Below, piece after piece: positions 11,807 through 23,719 of a stretch of DNA of 64,000 nucleotides; the stretch's first letter is position 1; each line of letters starts with the position of its first letter. The notes under the pieces are model-generated. The model made no database searches. It worked only from the letters and a program-made list of their open reading frames with translations, and had not been told where the DNA came from. Where the stretch lies: the NCBI RefSeq assembly GCF_002797815.1, contig NZ_PGFJ01000001.1, positions 1,860,001 through 1,924,000 on the forward strand. Reading direction: 5' to 3'. This DNA is from Mucilaginibacter auburnensis. GTDB lineage: Bacteria > Bacteroidota > Bacteroidia > Sphingobacteriales > Sphingobacteriaceae. Both the position numbers and the translations under genes were made by a program.

Positions 11807-14800
11807 TTAGAAAGTAATATTGGCACCTACCTGAACAGACCTTGGTACTGGCGGGGTTCCAAGGTCATAACCTAACACTGTTTGTGATGATGACACATTG
11901 ATCTCAGGGTCAGGACCTGTGTATTTTGTCCATAACCAAAGGTTGGAGCCGCTTACATAAAGCCTTACAGACGACAGTTTAGCCTTTTGAGCAAGGGCTT
12001 TTGGTAGGTTGTAACCAAGCGTGGCGTTGCTTAAGCGCAGGAAAGATCCATCTTCAATGTTACGTGTGGTTGGACTAATGGTATAGTTCTGACCATAGGC
12101 TGTCAACCTTGGCAAGTTGGTTATATCGCCAGGTTTTTGCCAGCGGTTGAGCTGGTTAGCACTCATAGCCCTGTTGGCATCACGTGTGCCGCCACCTTCT
12201 AAAAAGAACTGGTTGTTGTTGTAAACTTTGTTGCCATAAACAAAGCTGAAGAATACAGACAGGTCAAAACCTTTGTAGCGGAAACTGTTGGTTAAGCCAC
12301 CATTAAATTTAGGCAGTGCGTTACCTACCGGAACAATGTCGTTGGCATTAATTACACCATTTTTGTCTGCATCTTGATAAACTGCATTGCCTGTTTGCGG
12401 ATCAACGTACAATTGCTTGTAGGTGTAAAAGGTGTACATTGACTGGCCCTGAACCATGCGTTGTGCAGCATAAGCGGCAACAACCGGAGTAGGCAGCTTT
12501 TCAATTTTGTTTACGTTGCGTGATATGTTGAAATTGGTGGTCCATCTAAACTCACCATCAAGGTTAACGCTTGACACACTTAGCTCAACTCCGCGGTTAC
12601 TGATCTCGCCGGCATTGGTTAATATGGATGAAAAACCCTTGCTTGAAGGCAGCGGCAAATTCAATAATAAATTGCTGGTATATTTATCATATACATCGCC
12701 TGTTACGGTTAAACGGTCATTGAATAAACTCAAGTCGAAACCGATATTGGTTTGCCGGGTGCTTTCCCATTTCAGATCAGGATTGGCGAGTTGAGAAGGT
12801 ATAGTTCCCGGGTTATTGAGATAGTTAGCACCTGCTCCCCATAAACCTCGTGATGCAAAATCATTTATACCGTTTTGGTTACCGGTTACGCCAATACTTC
12901 CGCGTATTTTTAAATCGCTTATAGCCTTCACATCCTCCAGGAAGCTTTCTTTTTTAACTCGCCATGACAATCCCGCTGATGGGAAGTAACCCCACTGATT
13001 ATTGGTACCGAAGCGAGATGAACCATCAGCCCGAATGCTGAAAACAGCGTAGTACTTTGAATTGAAATTATAGTTTGCGCGGGCAAAAAATGATGATAAT
13101 TTGTAACGCGACTCCGAGGCTGATGCAGTAGTTGTAGCAGCCGACGCTATTTGCTGAAATGAGTCATTCGGGAAATTGGTGCCCTGGGCCAGCGTTTGGC
13201 TGGTTACTGATCCTTGTAATGAATTACCTACCAACACACCAAATGAATGGGCACCAAAAGATTTGGTGTAGTTTAGCGTTTGTTCGTTAGTCCAAATAGT
13301 ATTGTTGCTTACACTTGAAGTACCCAGGTTTTTATTGGCTATACCCAAATTGGTTAAACTATTCCAGTATTGAAATTCGTTGTACTGGTTGTAGTCGACA
13401 CTCCAGCTGGTTTTAAAAGTGAGGTTCTTTGATATTTTGACTTCGCCATACAGATTGCTGATCAGCCTGTTGCTCGTACTGTTCATATTGGTGTTGTTCA
13501 GCAGTACGTCAAGGTTATCAAAGCCGGCCCATTTAGCAGGGCTGCCATCAGCATTAAACTCAGGTAAGTAAGTTGGCGTATGTAAAGCCGACTGAAGAAC
13601 ACCGCCCTGAGGGCCATCACCAACACGCGCATTTGTTCTGTAGGTTTGGCTTAAAGTGTTGCTTGTACCAACAGTTACATAGTCGCTTATTTTTTGATCA
13701 AGGTTGATCTTAAAGGATGCGCGCCTGAAGTCATTAGTTTTTAAGCTGGCTTGTTGCTTATTTAAGCCGGCACCTATATAGTAGGTGGTTTTATCATTAC
13801 CGCCAGACAATGACAAGTCGTAATTCTGTAGATAACCTGTACGAAAAGCCTTATGTAAACGGTCATACGTGTTCTGATCCTGCGGCAATCCCCGTGGCGC
13901 AGGCGAAGCTGTAGGATTGTCAGTTAATGCCCTGAATGGCTGAAAGCGATAGGTGGTAGCAGGCGCAGTTCCGTTAGTATTTGCAATAGCAATTGCATCG
14001 GCGTTAGAGTTTCTGTAAAACTCGTTGATCAGTTCGGCATGTTGCGGACCGGTAACCAGATCCCAGAGTTTTGGCGCCCATGCGCCACCAAAATAAGTGC
14101 TTAAGCTAACTTTGGGTGCAGTATTATACTTGCCACGTTTGGTAGTTATAACAATAACACCATTGGCAGCCCGCGCACCGTAAATAGCAGTTGCATCAGC
14201 ATCCTTTAAAACAGTAATGCTTTCTATATCATCCGGATTAATATCAGATAATGGGTTGTTGGCCTGCCCCTGAGTGGTGATGCGTTGCTGAGATCCGCTA
14301 TTAATGTATACACCATCTATTACATATAATGGATCATTACTGGCATTGATTGAGGTAGTACCACGAACGCGAATAAACATACCATCGCCGGGAATGCCGG
14401 TAGACGTGCTCACCTGTAAACCGGATGCTTTCCCCTGTAATTGTTCAGCAAAGGTTGCAGTTGGTTTATTACGTACCTCATCAACCGCTATAGTGGCTAC
14501 AGAACCGGTTAATGATTTACGCGTTTGTGTTCCGTAACCTACAACAACAACATCATTTAATTGATTAATAGCTTCTTTGAGCCTTATGGTTACAGGGCTA
14601 CCATCAACCGCAATTTCTTTCGGCTCATAGCCAACGTAGCTTACAACAATAACAAAAGGTAGTTTTTGCGCAGTGATCAATGTAAACTTTCCGTTCACAT
14701 CAGTACTGGCACCATTCGTAACACCTTTTATGCGTACAACAGCTCCTGGCAGGCCAATTTTTGATGCAGAATCGAGCACAAAACCGTCTATTTTTGAGTT

Positions 14801-14911
14801 TCCTGGCGGTACATTTTGCGCATGCGTTTTATTGGAGAAGGTTAGGGCAGATAAAATAAAAACAAAACCTAACCGTATAATGGTTTTCTTCTTATGGATA
14901 AATATGTCCAT
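11807..14911 (-). CDS. SusC/RagA-family TonB-dependent outer-membrane transporter
   Basis: About 1,034 residues. A signal peptide is followed by a carboxypeptidase-regulatory-like domain (IDGFVLDSASKIGLPGAVVR...), a TonB-box-like and plug region (NDVVVVGYGTQTRKSLTGSVA; ATAIYGARAANGVIVITTKRG) and a C-terminal 22-strand-type barrel ending VQVGANITF. It imports nutrients across the outer membrane using TonB energy. The ATG at 14911 was taken; an in-frame TTG lies 9 bases further upstream. It leads a three-gene unit with susD and the S51 peptidase. No sigma/anti-sigma pair or hybrid two-component regulator lies beside it. Confidence 0.95.
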   Translation of the reverse strand: MDIFIHKKKTIIRLGFVFILSALTFSNKTHAQNVPPGNSKIDGFVLDSASKIGLPGAVVRIKGVTNGASTDVNGKFTLITAQKLPFVIVVSYVGYEPKEIAVDGSPVTIRLKEAINQLNDVVVVGYGTQTRKSLTGSVATIAVDEVRNKPTATFAEQLQGKASGLQVSTSTGIPGDGMFIRVRGTTSINASNDPLYVIDGVYINSGSQQRITTQGQANNPLSDINPDDIESITVLKDADATAIYGARAANGVIVITTKRGKYNTAPKVSLSTYFGGAWAPKLWDLVTGPQHAELINEFYRNSNADAIAIANTNGTAPATTYRFQPFRALTDNPTASPAPRGLPQDQNTYDRLHKAFRTGYLQNYDLSLSGGNDKTTYYIGAGLNKQQASLKTNDFRRASFKINLDQKISDYVTVGTSNTLSQTYRTNARVGDGPQGGVLQSALHTPTYLPEFNADGSPAKWAGFDNLDVLLNNTNMNSTSNRLISNLYGEVKISKNLTFKTSWSVDYNQYNEFQYWNSLTNLGIANKNLGTSSVSNNTIWTNEQTLNYTKSFGAHSFGVLVGNSLQGSVTSQTLAQGTNFPNDSFQQIASAATTTASASESRYKLSSFFARANYNFNSKYYAVFSIRADGSSRFGTNNQWGYFPSAGLSWRVKKESFLEDVKAISDLKIRGSIGVTGNQNGINDFASRGLWGAGANYLNNPGTIPSQLANPDLKWESTRQTNIGFDLSLFNDRLTVTGDVYDKYTSNLLLNLPLPSSKGFSSILTNAGEISNRGVELSVSSVNLDGEFRWTTNFNISRNVNKIEKLPTPVVAAYAAQRMVQGQSMYTFYTYKQLYVDPQTGNAVYQDADKNGVINANDIVPVGNALPKFNGGLTNSFRYKGFDLSVFFSFVYGNKVYNNNQFFLEGGGTRDANRAMSANQLNRWQKPGDITNLPRLTAYGQNYTISPTTRNIEDGSFLRLSNATLGYNLPKALAQKAKLSSVRLYVSGSNLWLWTKYTGPDPEINVSSSQTVLGYDLGTPPVPRSVQVGANITF

Positions 14912-14957
14912 ATTTAACAAGTTTTATGTTAATGATTAATTCATTGCTAAGACTGGG

Positions 14958-16570: not shown

Positions 16571-16583
16571 CAGAGCGGGAATC
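16571..16583. repeat. Left attachment-site-like repeat (partial copy of tRNA-Leu 3' end)
   Basis: The 13 bases are identical to 23639-23651 within tRNA-Leu. Beyond them weaker gapped similarity to the tRNA seems to continue (CCGTT-ACGG, then GGATTTT..GTC). The adjoining 16580-16598 forms a 7-bp inverted repeat with a 5-base loop. Confidence 0.6.
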
Positions 16584-16665: not shown

Positions 16666-18666
16666 CTATTCTCGCTTTTTGAATGTGAGCTTAGGCAAAA
16701 TGATCATGACCTGATGTTGAGCGCCTTCTTTTTGCCACCAAACCACATAATTAACTGTGGCTTCTTTTAGGTTGAAGTTTTTAGATTTTAAGGACACTAC
16801 CTTTTCCATGAACTGCCTGGAGAATCTGAGTACCGGATAACCATTGCTTTCCAGATATTCGTCGCCCCGATATTGCAAGTTATCACCTGCTAATAATTTA
16901 GCGATCTGTGGTTGCACATTGTAGAAGTGATTGAGCTGAACATCTTTATGTGTCAGGTGCATGGATAGTTGATCAGCAGGCGGGTTTTGTCCTGTTACCT
17001 CTGTTCTATGCATACTCGTGGTTTGGATATGATCGAAATGCCCACTGTTCAAGTGTATCGTCAAGCTATGTTTAGCCCTTGTGATCGCTACATAAATTTC
17101 TCGTTTTTGCTGTTCGCTGATCATGTTCGTTAGCCCATCCAGCATAAGAAACAAATTGTCAAATTCTCGTCCTTTAGCTTTGTGAATGGTTGAAACAAAA
17201 ATGGTTTCAGTATCACGTTTATAAAAGTCTTCTAAATGCGACTCGCGAATAAAAACATCAAGGTCCGACCGATATTTCTTTTTGGAATTCACAGTCTCGA
17301 AGTCTGTTATCAACTGTTCCAATATGGGCCAGTTTTCACTCTTTGCAAACTTTGTTTTAACTGACCTTTTTGCGGCATCCCAGACTTTGTCTGGTATTAC
17401 GGGAATGTCATCTGTGGTATCCAACTGATCAATAAAGTATTTGATCTCAGCCAGATTGTGAATTGCGAAGCCGTCGTTAGAACGAATAAGTTTAGCCTTT
17501 AGCCCATGTCTTAAAAGCAATCCAGTTATTTCTTCAGCTTCGTTGTTATTATGAGTAAGTACGCACGTGCTGCCAGCTAAGGGAGTGTTTACGATTTCAG
17601 TTACCGTCGGCACTATCAAACTGTCGCTTGTATACCTGAATATCTTTATGATCCCATCATCAGCTTGTTGCGCCACTATCGGAGCGTTTTTTAATCGCCC
17701 TTGTAAGCATTTGACGAATTGATTAGCGAACTCCACAATGTTTTTCTTGCTGCGGTAATTTTCGGTCAATTCATAAATTTTACCTCCATCTAGTGCAGCT
17801 AAAGTTTTGAGATGTTTGGAATCTGCGCCGCGGAATTCATAGATATTCTGGTCGTCGTCCCCAACAGCTATTACCCGCATATCCTCATTTTCAGCCATTA
17901 GCGCGCTTACCAAATTGAAATTATCCTCGTCCATATCTTGGGCCTCATCTATCACCAATACGGTCTTGGTGATCCTGTTCGGTTCAACCTCGTTACTTTT
18001 TATCTTTTCAATAGTTCGCTTAATGATCGTATCAGCTCCATCAATACTTCCAACTTTGCCCAGCAGGTCAAAGCAATAGGAATGGAAGGTTTTTATTTCG
18101 ATGAAGTTGGCCGCATTACCCACCAATTTCAATAAACGCTTTTTAAACTCAGTTGCAGCCGCACGCGAGAAGGTGAGCATTAACAATTGCTCATGCTTAA
18201 CATCTTCCAGCATCATCAGCGATGCCAGTTTGTGCACCAATACCTTGGTCTTCCCACTACCGGGCCCGGCTGCAACCACAATATATTTCGAGGTTTTATC
18301 GCTAATAATAGCTGATTGCGTTGGCGAAAGCTCGCCGATAAGCTCTCTGTATTTTGCCGGTGTAAGGTTCAGGCTTATCTCTTGTTGCCTGCTGCCCTTA
18401 AAATATTTGTTTAGGAACGATGGATAATTGAGTCGGAAATAGTCGTCAACAAACTGCAGGGCTCCTACATAGTCGTCGATCATCTTTTGCGCGTATTCGC
18501 CAACAATGTGTATTTGCTGGGTACGGTTCTGATAAAATTCGTCAAGCTTTTGATAATCGTCCTCTTTGTATTGGATGCGGGTATTCTGTTCAATCCGTTC
18601 AATGGTCAGCCGGTTGTAAACGACTAAAAATCCGCCCTCTATCTTCAAAGCTTCTATGCGTGACAA
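16666..18666 (-). CDS. UvrD/PcrA-type superfamily 1 helicase, probable C-terminal half of a frameshifted exo-RecQ-UvrD protein
   Basis: All SF1A helicase motifs are present. In the frame counted from 18666, Walker A is GPGSGKT at 134-140. Others are Walker B VIDEAQD, GDDDQNIYEFRG, LTENYRS, VSTIHKAKGREFDNL and YVAITRAKHS. It should be an ATP-driven DNA translocase/helicase. The frame has no ATG before 18483, which is about 60 residues inside conserved-looking sequence. The segment ahead of it (IDDIEDALFYLSRIEALKIE, reaching back to 18789) reads as coding and looks like the continuation of the RecQ protein upstream. RecQ ends at 18768 in the other frame, so one -1 shift between 18789 and 18771 would join them. 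It could also be translated separately from a TTG (18666) or ATG (18483). Confidence 0.85.
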   Translation of the reverse strand: MSRIEALKIEGGFLVVYNRLTIERIEQNTRIQYKEDDYQKLDEFYQNRTQQIHIVGEYAQKMIDDYVGALQFVDDYFRLNYPSFLNKYFKGSRQQEISLNLTPAKYRELIGELSPTQSAIISDKTSKYIVVAAGPGSGKTKVLVHKLASLMMLEDVKHEQLLMLTFSRAAATEFKKRLLKLVGNAANFIEIKTFHSYCFDLLGKVGSIDGADTIIKRTIEKIKSNEVEPNRITKTVLVIDEAQDMDEDNFNLVSALMAENEDMRVIAVGDDDQNIYEFRGADSKHLKTLAALDGGKIYELTENYRSKKNIVEFANQFVKCLQGRLKNAPIVAQQADDGIIKIFRYTSDSLIVPTVTEIVNTPLAGSTCVLTHNNNEAEEITGLLLRHGLKAKLIRSNDGFAIHNLAEIKYFIDQLDTTDDIPVIPDKVWDAAKRSVKTKFAKSENWPILEQLITDFETVNSKKKYRSDLDVFIRESHLEDFYKRDTETIFVSTIHKAKGREFDNLFLMLDGLTNMISEQQKREIYVAITRAKHSLTIHLNSGHFDHIQTTSMHRTEVTGQNPPADQLSMHLTHKDVQLNHFYNVQPQIAKLLAGDNLQYRGDEYLESNGYPVLRFSRQFMEKVVSLKSKNFNLKEATVNYVVWWQKEGAQHQVMIILPKLTFKKRE

Positions 18667-18767
18667 ATAAAACAGGGCATCTTCAATGTCATCAATAGTA
18701 ACTGGCCTGCTAAAGAATTGTAATTGTTTCTGATATTCTTTTTGTAATTCCTGAATGGAGAACTCGA

Positions 18768-21467
18768 TCAGTATTTCTTCCTTGTAGGTTCATCGGTCTT
18801 AATGGTGTTCGCCTTTTTATACAAAAACTCGACAATAAAAACAGACAGTGTGTGTCGGTTTTCGAATCGTTCTTTTGTCAAGTCGGCAGGTTGTTTAGCC
18901 TTGGCCTTAAAATAGTCTTTAGAACGGTTGGAATTGGTGCGGTCTATCCAGTTTTTGATAGCCCAAAAGTTGATGATCGTTTTGATTCTGTTTGGCGATA
19001 CATCGCTGCACCCGGCTGCCTCTAAACTTTCATTCAACTCTTTCAGGTTAAACACTCTGTCATATTCATCAATAAAGTTCAACAGGCAACGCTCTATCGC
19101 ACCAAATGAGTTGACCGCCTTCAATGAACTGGTTTTAGCTTCGCCACGTTTTATAAAGGCGGTTAGGTCAAACCCATCGGCCAATATTCGTTCTTCACGC
19201 AATAAATTGACAATTCTGATCACGTCATCCCGTGCCATGCCTAAGTGATCGCTGATATAATCGACGCGCGATTCGGCAGCCTCATCACTTGATAGCCGTT
19301 TGCTTTTGCTCGAAAAGAGCTTTTTAATGATTCTGACCGCCATCCCCTTTTGTTTTTCAGAGAAGCGTTCAGATCGCATAATCTTGTCAATTGCTTCTTG
19401 CGCATTTTTCGACTGGATGCTATTGGCAAAAACACGCGGCTGATTCTGCCCACGCTTAAGGTAGCCGGCATCTTCAAGTGCGGCGATGGCGGTTGTTACC
19501 CTTGTTTCCATATTGTCCACACTGTCATCCCAACCTGCCTTTCGTGCAATCTCTAAAGCTGAGTTGGACATTTTATCCCGAAAACGGGTAAGACTTTTGA
19601 TGGTCCTCCATATTTGCTGTATTTCCTTGATAGATATCTTGGTTTGACTAAGCATGATGAAATGTTTGCTCAGGTCTTCTTCATTAAAAAGCACATAGCA
19701 ATCAGCCTCAATATTTTCATCACGTCCGGCGCGTCCAGCTTCTTGTACATAGTTTTCGAGCGAGTCCGAAATATCATGATGGATGACAATACCCACATCC
19801 TTTTTGTCCACGCCCATCCCAAAAGCAGATGTAGCCACGATAATACCTACTCTCCCCGAAAGAAATGCATCTTGATTGGCTACCTTTTCCGCGGCATCCA
19901 ATTTGCCGTGGAATGCCCTGGCGTTCAAACCATCGGCCGTCAACCGTTTTGCCAGGTTTTCGGCCCGTTTGGTACGCGACACATAAACGATGGCGGGCCT
20001 GTCCTGTTCCTCTATCAGTTCGCGCGTCGCCTGATATTTTTCTTCGTCGCTACCTTTAGCTAAGACTTTATAGTGCAGATTGGTACGCGACGCGGAAGAC
20101 GTAAATCGATCTAAGCTCAAATCCAGTTTGTCTTCAAAGTATTTACAAATGTCTTCAATAACCTGTGGTTTGGCCGTAGCTGTAAAGCAGGATACCGGTA
20201 TGGGATAAGTCAGCTGTTTGGACTCGCGAATCAGTTTGATCATCTCGCCGATGTAAAGATAATCCACCCTGAAATCCTGTCCCCATGATGAAAAACAGTG
20301 GGCCTCGTCTATCACGAACCGCGCTATCTTGCGGCTTAACAACAAACGGTATATGGTGGGCGATCTTAACGATTCAGGAGATATGTAAAGCATACAGGCA
20401 GAACCATCAGCTACGCGTTCGATAGCTTTGCTACGTTCGATCGGGTCGAGCAGGCCGTTGACGGTCACTGCTGTGGTAATACCGTTCTTTTCCAAGTTAT
20501 CTACCTGATCTTTCATAAGTGATTGCAGTGGCGATATCACTACAGTAAGGGCGTGTGCATTTTCGCCAGCGAGCAAGGCCGGCACTTGAAAAGTAATGGA
20601 CTTGCCACCACCGGTAGGGAAAACTGCTATGAAAGATTTGGAGTTGATAGCAGCGTTGACTGCGTTTAATTGCAATGGCTGACCGCCATATTCACGAAAG
20701 GAACGATAACCAAAATAACGGTCTAACGCACGATGTGCATCTAACGCCTGGTCACAATAGGGGCAACCTGTAACGCAGGGTTTTTGTCGCAATAAAAACA
20801 TTAAACGCTCTACTTCCTTAAAATGAGCCAATACCCAACCCGGAGTTACAGAAGCAGGTTCGCTTGCATTGATTAATGATAGGCAATAAGCCAGCTCTAT
20901 GGGCGTACGCTGTACAAATAGTTCAACATCAGCATTATTGCAAATGCGGTTACTAAATAGCTTTCGAATCAGCGTTGCTACGTCACCCTCTGCTTGGTAG
21001 TCGAGATATTTAAAAAATCCGCCAAAACGATCATCGTCGCCGACAAGGAGGTATAGCAGCCGTTTTATATCTTCATCTAAATCCTTAAATATGGCTACCT
21101 CATCGTAAAAAAGGTCTTGGGCCTTTATGGCGTCATTCAGTGGATTGTTAAGTTCGTCGGTTTGTAACTTGTCATCTTTAAGTAGCGCATGGTAAGGTCT
21201 GGACGGAAATAGTAATGGCGACAAGTACAAGGTATCAATAATATTGTTATTGCTGATGCCAGCCTTTTCAATGAAACTGCCGATATACTTCAGATCGTGC
21301 TGGGTAATGAAATGCCCGCAAATGAACTGTGTGCCTCTCAGAAAGTCAGTCAACTCAACACCAGAATTTTTATGGAATTTTGCGCCATCGTTTCGGATCG
21401 CCCCAATGTCCTTAACCTGCTTGGTTTTAGGTGCGACTTCGGTATCTATAAAGGCAATTGTATTCAA
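18768..21467 (-). CDS. DnaQ-like exonuclease fused to RecQ helicase
   Basis: An 899-residue protein. Residues 1-120 form a DEDD-type 3'-5' exonuclease: Asp8 and Glu10 in FIDTE, Asp58 in GHFITQHD, and a third motif around His93-Asp112. Then comes a linker with CVTGCPYC (possible zinc site, 231-238). The RecQ core follows: Walker A TGGGKS 285-290, DEAH 387-390, CFTATAKP and YVQEAGRAGRD. C-terminal winged-helix-like sequence ends the frame. This order recalls eukaryotic WRN. No ATG precedes the exonuclease motif after the upstream stop, so TTG at 21467 is the likely start. The frame ends PTRKKY-stop, and the -1 frame continues directly into the UvrD helicase. Confidence 0.88.
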   Translation of the reverse strand: MNTIAFIDTEVAPKTKQVKDIGAIRNDGAKFHKNSGVELTDFLRGTQFICGHFITQHDLKYIGSFIEKAGISNNNIIDTLYLSPLLFPSRPYHALLKDDKLQTDELNNPLNDAIKAQDLFYDEVAIFKDLDEDIKRLLYLLVGDDDRFGGFFKYLDYQAEGDVATLIRKLFSNRICNNADVELFVQRTPIELAYCLSLINASEPASVTPGWVLAHFKEVERLMFLLRQKPCVTGCPYCDQALDAHRALDRYFGYRSFREYGGQPLQLNAVNAAINSKSFIAVFPTGGGKSITFQVPALLAGENAHALTVVISPLQSLMKDQVDNLEKNGITTAVTVNGLLDPIERSKAIERVADGSACMLYISPESLRSPTIYRLLLSRKIARFVIDEAHCFSSWGQDFRVDYLYIGEMIKLIRESKQLTYPIPVSCFTATAKPQVIEDICKYFEDKLDLSLDRFTSSASRTNLHYKVLAKGSDEEKYQATRELIEEQDRPAIVYVSRTKRAENLAKRLTADGLNARAFHGKLDAAEKVANQDAFLSGRVGIIVATSAFGMGVDKKDVGIVIHHDISDSLENYVQEAGRAGRDENIEADCYVLFNEEDLSKHFIMLSQTKISIKEIQQIWRTIKSLTRFRDKMSNSALEIARKAGWDDSVDNMETRVTTAIAALEDAGYLKRGQNQPRVFANSIQSKNAQEAIDKIMRSERFSEKQKGMAVRIIKKLFSSKSKRLSSDEAAESRVDYISDHLGMARDDVIRIVNLLREERILADGFDLTAFIKRGEAKTSSLKAVNSFGAIERCLLNFIDEYDRVFNLKELNESLEAAGCSDVSPNRIKTIINFWAIKNWIDRTNSNRSKDYFKAKAKQPADLTKERFENRHTLSVFIVEFLYKKANTIKTDEPTRKKY

Positions 21468-21873: not shown

Positions 21874-21890
21874 ACAAAACCTTGTCGAAT

Positions 21891-22736
21891 ATGCCTCCAA
21901 CTATTCAGCGTGTCCGGGACGAAAAGCGTGTAATAATTGATTCCAGAGATTATCCAGCGGAATTAATTCGAAAGTTTATACCGAAGAAACTGTACAAGTA
22001 CCATACTGTTACGAAATATTTTCTTGAAGGCTTGACTAACAATGAGCTTTGGTTTTCGTCACCATTGGATTTTAACGACCCCTTTGATTGTAAGGTGAAC
22101 TTAAAATTCGGCAACGATCAGAAAGCTGTTAGAAAAAATTTTGCAAAGGTATTCCCAGCCGAACGCTTTAGTGAAATTGTTGATATTGACAACTTTTACC
22201 AAAAACTCCTCGACAAGCCGGAGATGTTTCAATACCTACTAAATGAGACAACTAAACTGGCATTTGGCGACCAACTCGGTGTTTGTTGTTTTTCCGAGAA
22301 CCGGGACCACATTCTCATGTGGTCGCATTATGCGGGAAATCATGCTGGTGTGTGTTTACAGTTTAATGGCGCGAGACGCGGCCTTATACATGACAATATT
22401 TTACCTGTCAATTATTACGATAAGTACCCCGTGATCAAACTTTCTAATTATAAAAGTGATGAACTTAAAACTTTCTATTTCCAAGCTATTTGCTCCAAAT
22501 CTGATCATTGGGACTACGAATTTGAATGGCGCGCGGTTGTAGTAGGAGGCCGGAAAACTTATCCATATAAACCAACTGATCTAACAGGAATTATTTTTGG
22601 AGTAAATACAACCAAAGAGGATTTCAGCAAGATTGATACCATCATTCAAACGAATAAGTTGGATCATGTTCAATATTACCAAGCAGAAATGAGCGAGAAA
22701 GCTTACAGATTGAACATAAAAAAAATCGACAGATAG
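21891..22736 (+). CDS. DUF2971-family protein
   Basis: A 281-residue soluble protein from ATG at 21891; a TTG three codons earlier is possible. It shows the DUF2971 pattern: KLYKYHTVTKYFLEGLTNNELWFSSPLDFNDPFD near the N-terminus, then GVCCFSENRDHILMWSHYAG and GVCLQFN. A later EFEWRAVVVGG segment is also typical. The molecular role of the family is unknown. It lies between the divergent helicase pair and the recombinase remnant, so it is cargo of the same element. Confidence 0.8.
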   Translation: MPPTIQRVRDEKRVIIDSRDYPAELIRKFIPKKLYKYHTVTKYFLEGLTNNELWFSSPLDFNDPFDCKVNLKFGNDQKAVRKNFAKVFPAERFSEIVDIDNFYQKLLDKPEMFQYLLNETTKLAFGDQLGVCCFSENRDHILMWSHYAGNHAGVCLQFNGARRGLIHDNILPVNYYDKYPVIKLSNYKSDELKTFYFQAICSKSDHWDYEFEWRAVVVGGRKTYPYKPTDLTGIIFGVNTTKEDFSKIDTIIQTNKLDHVQYYQAEMSEKAYRLNIKKIDR

Positions 22737-23594
22737 TTTATAAAATTTGCAATGCAAAAATAACCCTTTAGCTTGCATCGCCATTAAGTAGCTTTGTGAC
22801 AACCAGTTGTTAATCCTATTGTTTCGGTACTTTGTACCATAAATATTATTACCGATGATCTGTTTTATCGTGTTCAGGATATTTTACAAGGTCGTACCAA
22901 GGTGTTGAGATTACAGGCCGTAAAAATCAATGAGTGTTTGCCATTACAGGGCTTTATTGAATGTGCTATGTGTGAGCGGCAATTAACGGCTAGTGCATCA
23001 CGCGGCAGGAAAGGTGGGTTTTATTATTATTACCATGCGCAGCATTCCTATGGCTGTGGTTGTCGGTATAAGGCTGATGAAGTAAATAAACTGATTATAG
23101 AGGAACTGGTAAAATTCGTTCCTAAGCCTGGAATGGCTGAATTATATAAGATGGTTGTCATTGATGTTTACAAAGGGTTTAGAAACAGCGCAGCAGATGG
23201 ACCGAAAAGTATTACGGATCAAATCGCTGTCATTCACACCCGGATGGCGAACGCCAGGGAAATGTTATTTGATGAAAAGCTGGAGCCGGAAGACTATGCG
23301 TTGATGAAAAAAGAATGTGATGAAAAGCTAAAAAGGCTGGAGGCAGCCTTGTCGGACCTGAAGATACAGAAATCGAACACGGCAAGTATAGATAGCATGG
23401 TTTTAAAGGCTGTAAAGGCACTTTCTAGGTTGGAAAGTATATATGAGGACGGGAACGCTATCATGAAAAGAACCTTGCTGGGTTCGATATTTCGGGAGAA
23501 ATTGCAATTTGACGGGAAAAGTTATCGAACCCGTCGAATCAATGAAGTAGCGATGTTAATATATCAGATAAACAATGAGTTAGGGCAAAAAAGA

Positions 23595-23631
23595 AACGGG
23601 AAAGATCGCGAGCCATCGCGTCTTTCCCGTT
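23595..23631 (-). terminator. Intrinsic terminator of the tRNA-Gly/tRNA-Leu transcript
   Basis: A hairpin of 15 bp with one bulged base (arms 23595-23610 and 23617-23631, loop 23611-23616) is followed on the minus strand by a run of T residues. It starts 4 bases beyond the tRNA-Leu 3' end. Confidence 0.8.
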
Positions 23632-23634
23632 CAG

Positions 23635-23719
23635 TACTCAGAGCGGGAATCGAACCCGCACTCCGTTTACGGGAACAGGATTTTAAGTCCTGCGTGTCTA
23701 CCAGTTCCACCATCTGAGC
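23635..23719 (-). tRNA. tRNA-Leu(TAA)
   Basis: An 85-base class II tRNA. The acceptor GCTCAGA/TCTGAGT has a G-U first pair. The anticodon arm is CAGGA-CTTAAAA-TCCTG (anticodon TAA), with a long variable arm and T arm GCGGG-TTCGATT-CCCGC. The discriminator is A. CCA is not encoded. It is the probable attachment site of the element to its left. Confidence 0.95.
23639..23651. repeat. Right attachment-site-like repeat within tRNA-Leu
   Basis: The 13 bases in the T arm/acceptor 3' strand of tRNA-Leu are identical to 16571-16583. Confidence 0.6.

What the first reader, a model, noticed from the sequence alone, without database searches (positions are those of the whole stretch)
16666..21467. Exonuclease-RecQ and UvrD helicases encoded as one polypeptide broken by a single -1 frame step
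The RecQ frame stops at 18768. The -1 frame is open from 18789 and runs without a stop through IEFSIQELQKEY and IDDIEDALFYLSRIEALKIE into all UvrD motifs. The UvrD half has no ATG until 18483, inside conserved-looking sequence. The step must occur between 18789 and 18771. Either one base was lost and the gene is broken, the sequence has an error, or frameshifting makes a ~1,600-residue exonuclease-SF2-SF1 helicase. Such a three-activity chain on a mobile unit would be a candidate anti-phage or DNA-processing system. No classic XXXYYYZ slip site is visible there, which favours mutation over programmed shifting.
Basis: partly seen in the sequence, partly recalled or inferred. Interest (0 to 1): 0.82.

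Follow-up and report, generated by a model that had tools for sequence, protein, structure and literature searches.

The report
Broken copy of three-part DNA helicase
A large bacterial DNA-unwinding enzyme that related bacteria make as one piece (a probable DNA-trimming part plus two motors) is split in this genome by a one-base frame break, most likely an ordinary inactivating mutation in an accessory, possibly defensive, gene.

Summary
On the minus strand the RecQ frame ends at 18768 and the UvrD frame, one step back (-1), is open from 18789 to 16666. Relatives show the ancestral protein is one chain. In 25 of 400 genomes searched in the order, the UvrD half lies in one open frame of 1,543-1,670 aa. 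In 19 intact relatives the chain crosses the joint without a break. Breaks found in other copies fall elsewhere, and none of 12 heptamers tested is a slip site. So neither conserved frameshifting nor two ancestral genes fits. The window copy is a lineage-specific break, probably a mutation. A local sequence error is not excluded, but 0 of 66 orthologues tested in 400 kb of the same genome were split. The closest copy found (G402) has lost the whole RecQ half at a rearrangement, yet its UvrD part gives dN/dS 0.066 against the window: decay looks recent, or the UvrD half still works. 'Exonuclease' rests on weak but consistent profile evidence. The intact family is solo, patchy, sometimes on plasmids, and nearer to defence genes than a rough control: plausibly an anti-DNA defence or repair enzyme, untested.

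The parts
18768..21467 (-). Exonuclease-like domain plus RecQ half of the broken gene (899 aa, TTG start, TGA stop)
   Evidence: N-terminal domain
16666..18789 (-). UvrD half, open in the -1 register (707 aa as far as open); Walker and other UvrD motifs intact in the sequence
18768..18791 (-). Joint: stretch open in both frames where the frame step must lie; in the relatives a poorly conserved linker just before a conserved KEE(V/I)L(V/I)EFS block
18483..18485 (-). First ATG of the UvrD frame (complement), 9 bases inside the point (18492) where homology to the G402 remnant begins
21882..22736 (+). DUF2971 protein (PADLOC candidate family PDC-S31); neighbour, not a conserved partner
   Evidence: no match in 111 helicase loci
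22902..23717 (+). C-terminal fragment of a large serine recombinase (zinc ribbon part only)
23634..23719 (-). tRNA-Leu (taa); edge of the conserved chromosome, variable segment lies below 23634

Best explanation
A lineage-specific pseudogene, or one in the making, of a single-chain enzyme: an N-terminal DEDD-type exonuclease-like domain, a RecQ (SF2) motor and a UvrD (SF1) motor. A net loss of one base (or gain of two) in the linker before the second half split it. Shown: both frames, the single-chain ancestry, absence of the break in intact relatives, breaks at other places in a few other copies. Inferred: that the break is a mutation rather than a sequence error; that the RecQ half may still be made alone while the UvrD half is made poorly or not at all; that the intact enzyme uses two 3'-to-5' motors to open DNA and its exonuclease-like domain to trim the strand; and that it serves as a stand-alone accessory defence or repair enzyme carried in variable segments and on plasmids.
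For:: 28 of 400 genomes match (own included); 25 have one open frame of 1,543-1,670 aa; 19 intact relatives align through the joint; 81 of 88 loci have an open frame of at least 1,450 aa; annotated as one CDS (1,624 and 1,599 aa) on plasmids of Bacteroides finegoldii and Aliarcobacter cibarius; other copies broken at other residues (L056 numbering): about 115 (L060), 487 (L076), 1243 (L081), 284-310 (L108), 1155 (L117), 1328 (G095/L054); joint is near 893-903; 0 of 12 heptamers fit XXXYYYZ; 0 of 66 (and 0 of 67 in the reverse test) orthologues split, so the assembly is not generally frame-broken; 11 of 149 genus genomes hold the UvrD half, a patchy accessory pattern; largest neighbour cluster 7 of 80 loci, so no fixed partner; 149 PADLOC models hit among 125 nearest neighbours against 27 among 125 random ORFs.
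Against: No reads were available, so a local error cannot be excluded; 66 orthologues only bound the error rate. No independent assembly of this species was found. Both halves keep their motifs and there is one break only, so decay is not advanced: 15 of 457 near-invariant residues are changed, tied highest of 82 with an intact copy (GL053) of similar divergence, thus not diagnostic. The UvrD part in G402 without any RecQ half is still conserved (dN/dS 0.066), which could mean the UvrD half works alone; dS 1.16 is near saturation. The PADLOC control came from two genomes, not matched ones. No activity was tested.
Confidence: 0.78

Rival explanations
1. Sequence or assembly error: the gene is intact in the organism.
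For: One single-base step in an otherwise intact 4.8-kb gene; both halves keep motifs; dN/dS of the UvrD part against G402 is low.
Against: 0 of 66 and 0 of 67 orthologues split in 400 kb compared with G006; the joint has no run longer than three equal bases in the printed sequence; sporadic real breaks are seen in other copies.
Confidence: 0.2
2. Gene fission: RecQ and UvrD halves are now two working proteins, the second begun by coupled re-initiation at the stop (CTGA overlap) or from an internal TTG/ATG.
For: The stop TGA overlaps a CTG in the UvrD frame (sequence); TTG 18666 and 18648 and ATG 18483 are in frame; the G402 copy keeps a conserved 609-codon UvrD part with no RecQ half.
Against: No intact relative has this arrangement; starting at 18483 would drop conserved residues of the linker domain; the AAGGAAG that looks like a ribosome site is the coding of the conserved KEE; G402's junction is a rearrangement against a truncated histidine kinase; no start-site evidence.
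Confidence: 0.1
3. Programmed -1 frameshifting makes the full chain.
For: The two frames overlap by a short open stretch, as frameshift cassettes do.
Against: Relatives are in one frame; no XXXYYYZ heptamer (0 of 12). No stimulatory fold was tested.
Confidence: 0.02

Closest known systems
Single-chain proteins annotated 'RecQ family ATP-dependent DNA helicase' of about 1,600 aa (e.g. WP_022275194.1, WP_151029446.1)
   Same: Order of parts, length, sequence: UvrD half 48% identical over 93% of the query in B. finegoldii, 36% over 79% in A. cibarius
   Different: The window copy is split by a frame step
Exonuclease domains on RecQ helicases (cluster F.14 of the RNase H-like superfamily survey, PMC3985635; passages seen)
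   Same: RecQ helicases carrying a PF13482-type 3'-5' exonuclease-like domain were already clustered there
   Different: That passage mentions no UvrD part; I did not test that its members are these proteins
WRN (exonuclease plus RecQ)
   Same: Exonuclease-like domain before a RecQ core; WRN RecQ core matches at E 4e-49 or weaker
   Different: No UvrD motor in WRN (recalled); the family profile found no solved exonuclease
DpdF and PsyrT RecQ-like helicases of defence systems
   Same: RecQ core: PADLOC DpdF E 9e-98, PsyrT E 6e-76
   Different: NCBIfam DpdF 216.9 bits against a cut-off of 550; no Dpd or Psyr partners recognised among the flanking ORFs scanned
Gabija GajB
   Same: UvrD-type motor: PADLOC GajB E 8e-47, solved GajB E 8.2e-13 by fold
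   Different: No GajA among the flanking ORFs scanned; PcrA/UvrD/Rep score better by fold

Membership tests
Single-chain exonuclease-RecQ-UvrD family | One uninterrupted open frame over all parts | tested here: not met
   stop at 18770-18768, -1 step
Single-chain exonuclease-RecQ-UvrD family | RecQ core with sequence homology to the family | tested here: met
   68% and 65% identity to G161 and G293 over nearly the whole half
Single-chain exonuclease-RecQ-UvrD family | UvrD core with sequence homology to the family | tested here: met
   52-61% identity to 15 aligned relatives
Single-chain exonuclease-RecQ-UvrD family | N-terminal DEDD exonuclease-like domain with acidic residues D8, E10, D58, D112 | tested here: met
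   alignment (window row included): D8, E10, D58 invariant, D112 at least 90%; window reads DTE, QHD, NNPLND. Near-invariant N53 is F in the window
DEDDh exonucleases | Histidine five residues before the last aspartate | tested here: not met
   the aligned position is N107 in the family; H93/D98 is another H-x4-D but was not the aligned one
DEDDh exonucleases | Profile or fold similarity | tested here: inconclusive
   probability 91.7%; 41 of 44 PHROGs; but no solved exonuclease at E 10, no RNase_T hit; Foldseek's 50 listed hits cover the motor only
RecQ (TIGR01389 equivalog / TIGR00614 family) | Curated score cut-offs | tested here: inconclusive
   TIGR00614 273.6 bits over 219.8 (met); TIGR01389 312.8 under 640.2 (not met)
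Dpd system (DpdF) | NCBIfam DpdF cut-off | tested here: not met
   216.9 under 550
Gabija | GajA next to GajB | tested here: not met
   the flanking ORFs scanned are DUF2971, a recombinase fragment and a 95-aa ORF
Programmed -1 frameshift gene | Slip heptamer | tested here: not met
   0 of 12 heptamers
Programmed -1 frameshift gene | Frame step conserved in homologues | tested here: not met
Anti-phage defence system | Protection against phage | not testable with these tools
   Context only:

The most novel reading that the evidence does not exclude
The chain is undergoing fission: in this lineage and in its nearest relative the UvrD half has become an independent, selected protein, freed once by a frame step and once by loss of the RecQ half.
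Probability: 0.08. Interest if true: 0.45.

Novelty: new member of a known kind. Interest (0 to 1): 0.27.

Why it matters
The break itself is ordinary. The intact family is the interesting part: a widespread, solo, about 1,600-aa chain with two helicase motors of different superfamilies and an exonuclease-like domain. In the five search listings that paired RecQ with UvrD and fusion, defence or domain-architecture terms (open-licence library only) I saw no title or abstract start that describes the fused chain. If it defends against phage or plasmid DNA it would be a one-gene analogue of multi-gene helicase-nuclease systems.

Tried and rejected
Programmed frameshifting: rejected, since relatives run in one frame and no slip heptamer is present. 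Two ancestral genes: rejected for the same reason. A fixed operon partner: not found; the DUF2971 gene, the recombinase fragment and the 95-aa ORF of the window have no match in 111 helicase loci. An attachment repeat at 16571-16583 against the tRNA-Leu: 13 bases, E 0.13 in the window; a genome-wide search found no second tRNA-Leu copy and equally short chance matches, so it is not claimed. Relaxed selection: inconclusive; 15 of 457 near-invariant changes, tied highest of 82; the RecQ half is slightly more diverged relative to the UvrD half than usual (ratio 1.10, rank 3 of 82, median 0.95, sd 0.076), a weak hint; lineage changes are even between window (27) and G402 (31), 31 ambiguous. Exonuclease by solved structure: nothing. 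Phages: 80 records matched the UvrD half, none over 80% of it. E. coli genomes: no match for a 1-kb piece. Viral contigs: 80 loci kept of 201; eight (L136-L143) match nearly all of the UvrD half at 44-50% identity, and their viral nature was not checked. One search kept only the best 80 of at least 533 relatives. Neighbour scan: 125 of 143 nearest neighbours were given; 18 were left out by hand to fit the residue limit, as pieces of broken helicase genes, or as short ORFs.

Full report
Observation. The minus-strand RecQ frame begins at TTG 21467 and stops at TGA 18770-18768. The UvrD frame lies one base back; its own upstream stop is at 18792-18790, so it is open from 18789 to the stop at 16666. 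The frame step must lie in the stretch open in both frames, 18791-18768. The first ATG of the UvrD frame is at 18483, with TTG codons at 18666 and 18648 before it. Several relatives also begin at the aligned N-terminus with TTG or ATG, so the start at 21467 is likely right.

What the parts are. The RecQ half hits DEAD and Helicase_C, the RecQ family model TIGR00614 over its cut-off, and the RecQ equivalog TIGR01389 under its cut-off. The UvrD half hits UvrD-helicase and UvrD_C. Predicted structures of an intact relative (L056) gave mean pLDDT 84.9 for residues 1-655 and 77.4 for 640-1605. The best solved matches were the RecQ core (1oyw, E 4.3e-25) and PcrA/UvrD/Rep (1pjr, E 2.3e-24). The N-terminal domain is only weakly recognised. 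PHROGs 'DNA polymerase exonuclease subunit' hits 41 of 44 members at E <= 1 (best 5.2e-7). hhalign with 18 RNase_T domains gives 91.7% and E 7.7e-7, against 0.5% for the UvrD profile as control. The acidic residues D8, E10, D58 and D112 are conserved, but in that alignment the usual histidine is an asparagine (N107). Against it: no solved exonuclease was matched at E 10, no RNase_T hit in Pfam, and the window's own domain has no PHROGs hit at E 0.01.

Relatives. In 400 genomes drawn from the order, 28 (the window's genome included) match the UvrD half at E 1e-20; 25 have it in a single open frame of 1,543-1,670 aa, G095 is broken elsewhere, and G238 is split across contig ends. In the genus, 11 of 149 genomes match. 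A scan of the species collection found at least 533 relatives, of which the best 80 were kept. With eight loci from viral contigs, 81 of 88 have an open frame of at least 1,450 aa. Of the seven shorter ones, three (L101, L111, L132) run off a contig end and four (L076, L081, L108, L117) are broken; L060 counts among the 81 but has a stop near residue 115. These breaks, and that of G095, lie near residues 115, 487, 1243, 284-310, 1155 and 1328 in L056 numbering; the joint is near 893-903. In 19 intact relatives of the same family the joint region is a poorly conserved linker followed by a conserved KEE(V/I)L(V/I)EFS block, and the window's two frames fit on either side of it. In the model the block is a strand that opens a small helix-strand domain; calling it winged-helix-like is my inference. 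RefSeq annotates such chains as one CDS on plasmids of Bacteroides finegoldii (1,624 aa) and Aliarcobacter cibarius (1,599 aa). More distant proteins of 1,668-1,756 aa annotated as RecQ occur on plasmids of Scytonema, Nostoc and Allochromatium, the last beside a type I restriction locus; their N-terminal domains were not examined.

Why it is not programmed. The intact relatives show no frame step, and 0 of 12 heptamers over 18803-18768 fit the XXXYYYZ rule. The AAGGAAG just before the stop, which could be taken for a ribosome site, is the coding of the conserved KEE. I did not test for a stimulatory fold.

Mutation or error. Using G006, 66 orthologues could be compared full-length in 400 kb around the window, and none was split into two frames; the reverse test gave 0 of 67. 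So the assembly is not generally frame-broken, but one local error cannot be excluded without reads. No other assembly of this species was found.

Closest copy. G402 has a UvrD part 85% identical. DNA homology starts at about window 18492. Upstream lies a histidine kinase gene on the other strand (its H-box SHELKTPL and ATP-binding motifs named by me from the sequence), truncated at the same point, and no family RecQ half is found elsewhere in G402 (best 39% identity over the motor only). So G402 carries a rearrangement remnant, or an assembly chimera. Over 608 codons window and G402 differ with dN 0.076, dS 1.16, dN/dS 0.066 (dS is high and thus rough). Most of their divergence arose under strong constraint, so both breaks are recent, or the UvrD part still serves on its own. 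The two are sisters with a long shared stem (0.419) and equal tips (0.095, 0.100).

Surroundings. Between the SusC-like gene ending the chromosomal block (11807-14920, minus) and tRNA-Leu (23634-23719, minus) lie only this gene, a 95-aa ORF, a DUF2971 gene and a recombinase C-terminal fragment. In five of six relatives compared, DNA similarity from recX through the tRNAs stops at 23633-23643; in the sixth (L220) the tRNA-Leu itself lies apart from recX. The 3' end of tRNA-Leu is thus the edge of a variable segment, as expected of an integration site. The recombinase has lost its N-terminal part, so the segment looks stranded.

Function of the family. It has no fixed partner: the largest neighbour cluster covers 7 of 80 loci, and the window's own neighbours have no match in 111 helicase loci. 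Among 125 nearest neighbours, 149 PADLOC models are hit at 1e-5, an HNH restriction model four times; among 125 random ORFs of two Mucilaginibacter-type genomes, 27 models are hit. The control is not matched by genome, and models are redundant, so this is a hint. The genus name is inferred from a contig of identical length and place (G214 and Mucilaginibacter pedocola L135). With the patchy spread, plasmid carriage and repeated inactivation, an accessory role in attacking or processing foreign DNA is my best guess; DNA repair is the alternative. Mechanism (inferred from the families, not shown): two 3'-to-5' motors on one chain open DNA from a 3' tail or nick while the exonuclease-like domain trims the exposed strand.

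Literature. Nine searches of the open-licence library ran. I saw listings, and passages of PMC3985635 (RecQ helicases in an exonuclease cluster), PMC5512222 and PMC9122126 (a reference entry only). No listing or passage that I saw describes an exonuclease-RecQ-UvrD chain; subscription papers and preprint servers are largely outside the library.

Verdict. A real but ordinary break in one copy of a widespread, annotated and apparently uncharacterised single-chain helicase family.

Noticed in passing
window 22902-23717 (+): Fragment of a large serine recombinase; only profile positions 372-569 of 651 match. Its frame runs into the complement of tRNA-Leu.
   Followed up: partly
window 21882-22736 (+): DUF2971 protein, PADLOC candidate defence family PDC-S31 (E 8.4e-64) and phrog_1762 (E 3.2e-49); no match in 111 helicase loci.
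   Followed up: partly
L216 9468-12002 (G402): UvrD remnant head-to-head with a 5'-truncated histidine kinase; real rearrangement or assembly chimera.
   Followed up: partly
L219 9915-9964 (G006): Second 50-bp copy (94%) of the tRNA-Leu 3' end about 650 bp from the tRNA, as left by another integration.
   Followed up: no
L108, L054: Other copies of the helicase gene broken by frameshifts (near residues 284-310 and 1328); L060, L076, L081, L117 carry in-frame stops.
   Followed up: partly
L136-L143: Eight IMG/VR contigs encode near full-length relatives of the UvrD half (44-50% identity); whether the contigs are truly viral was not checked.
   Followed up: no
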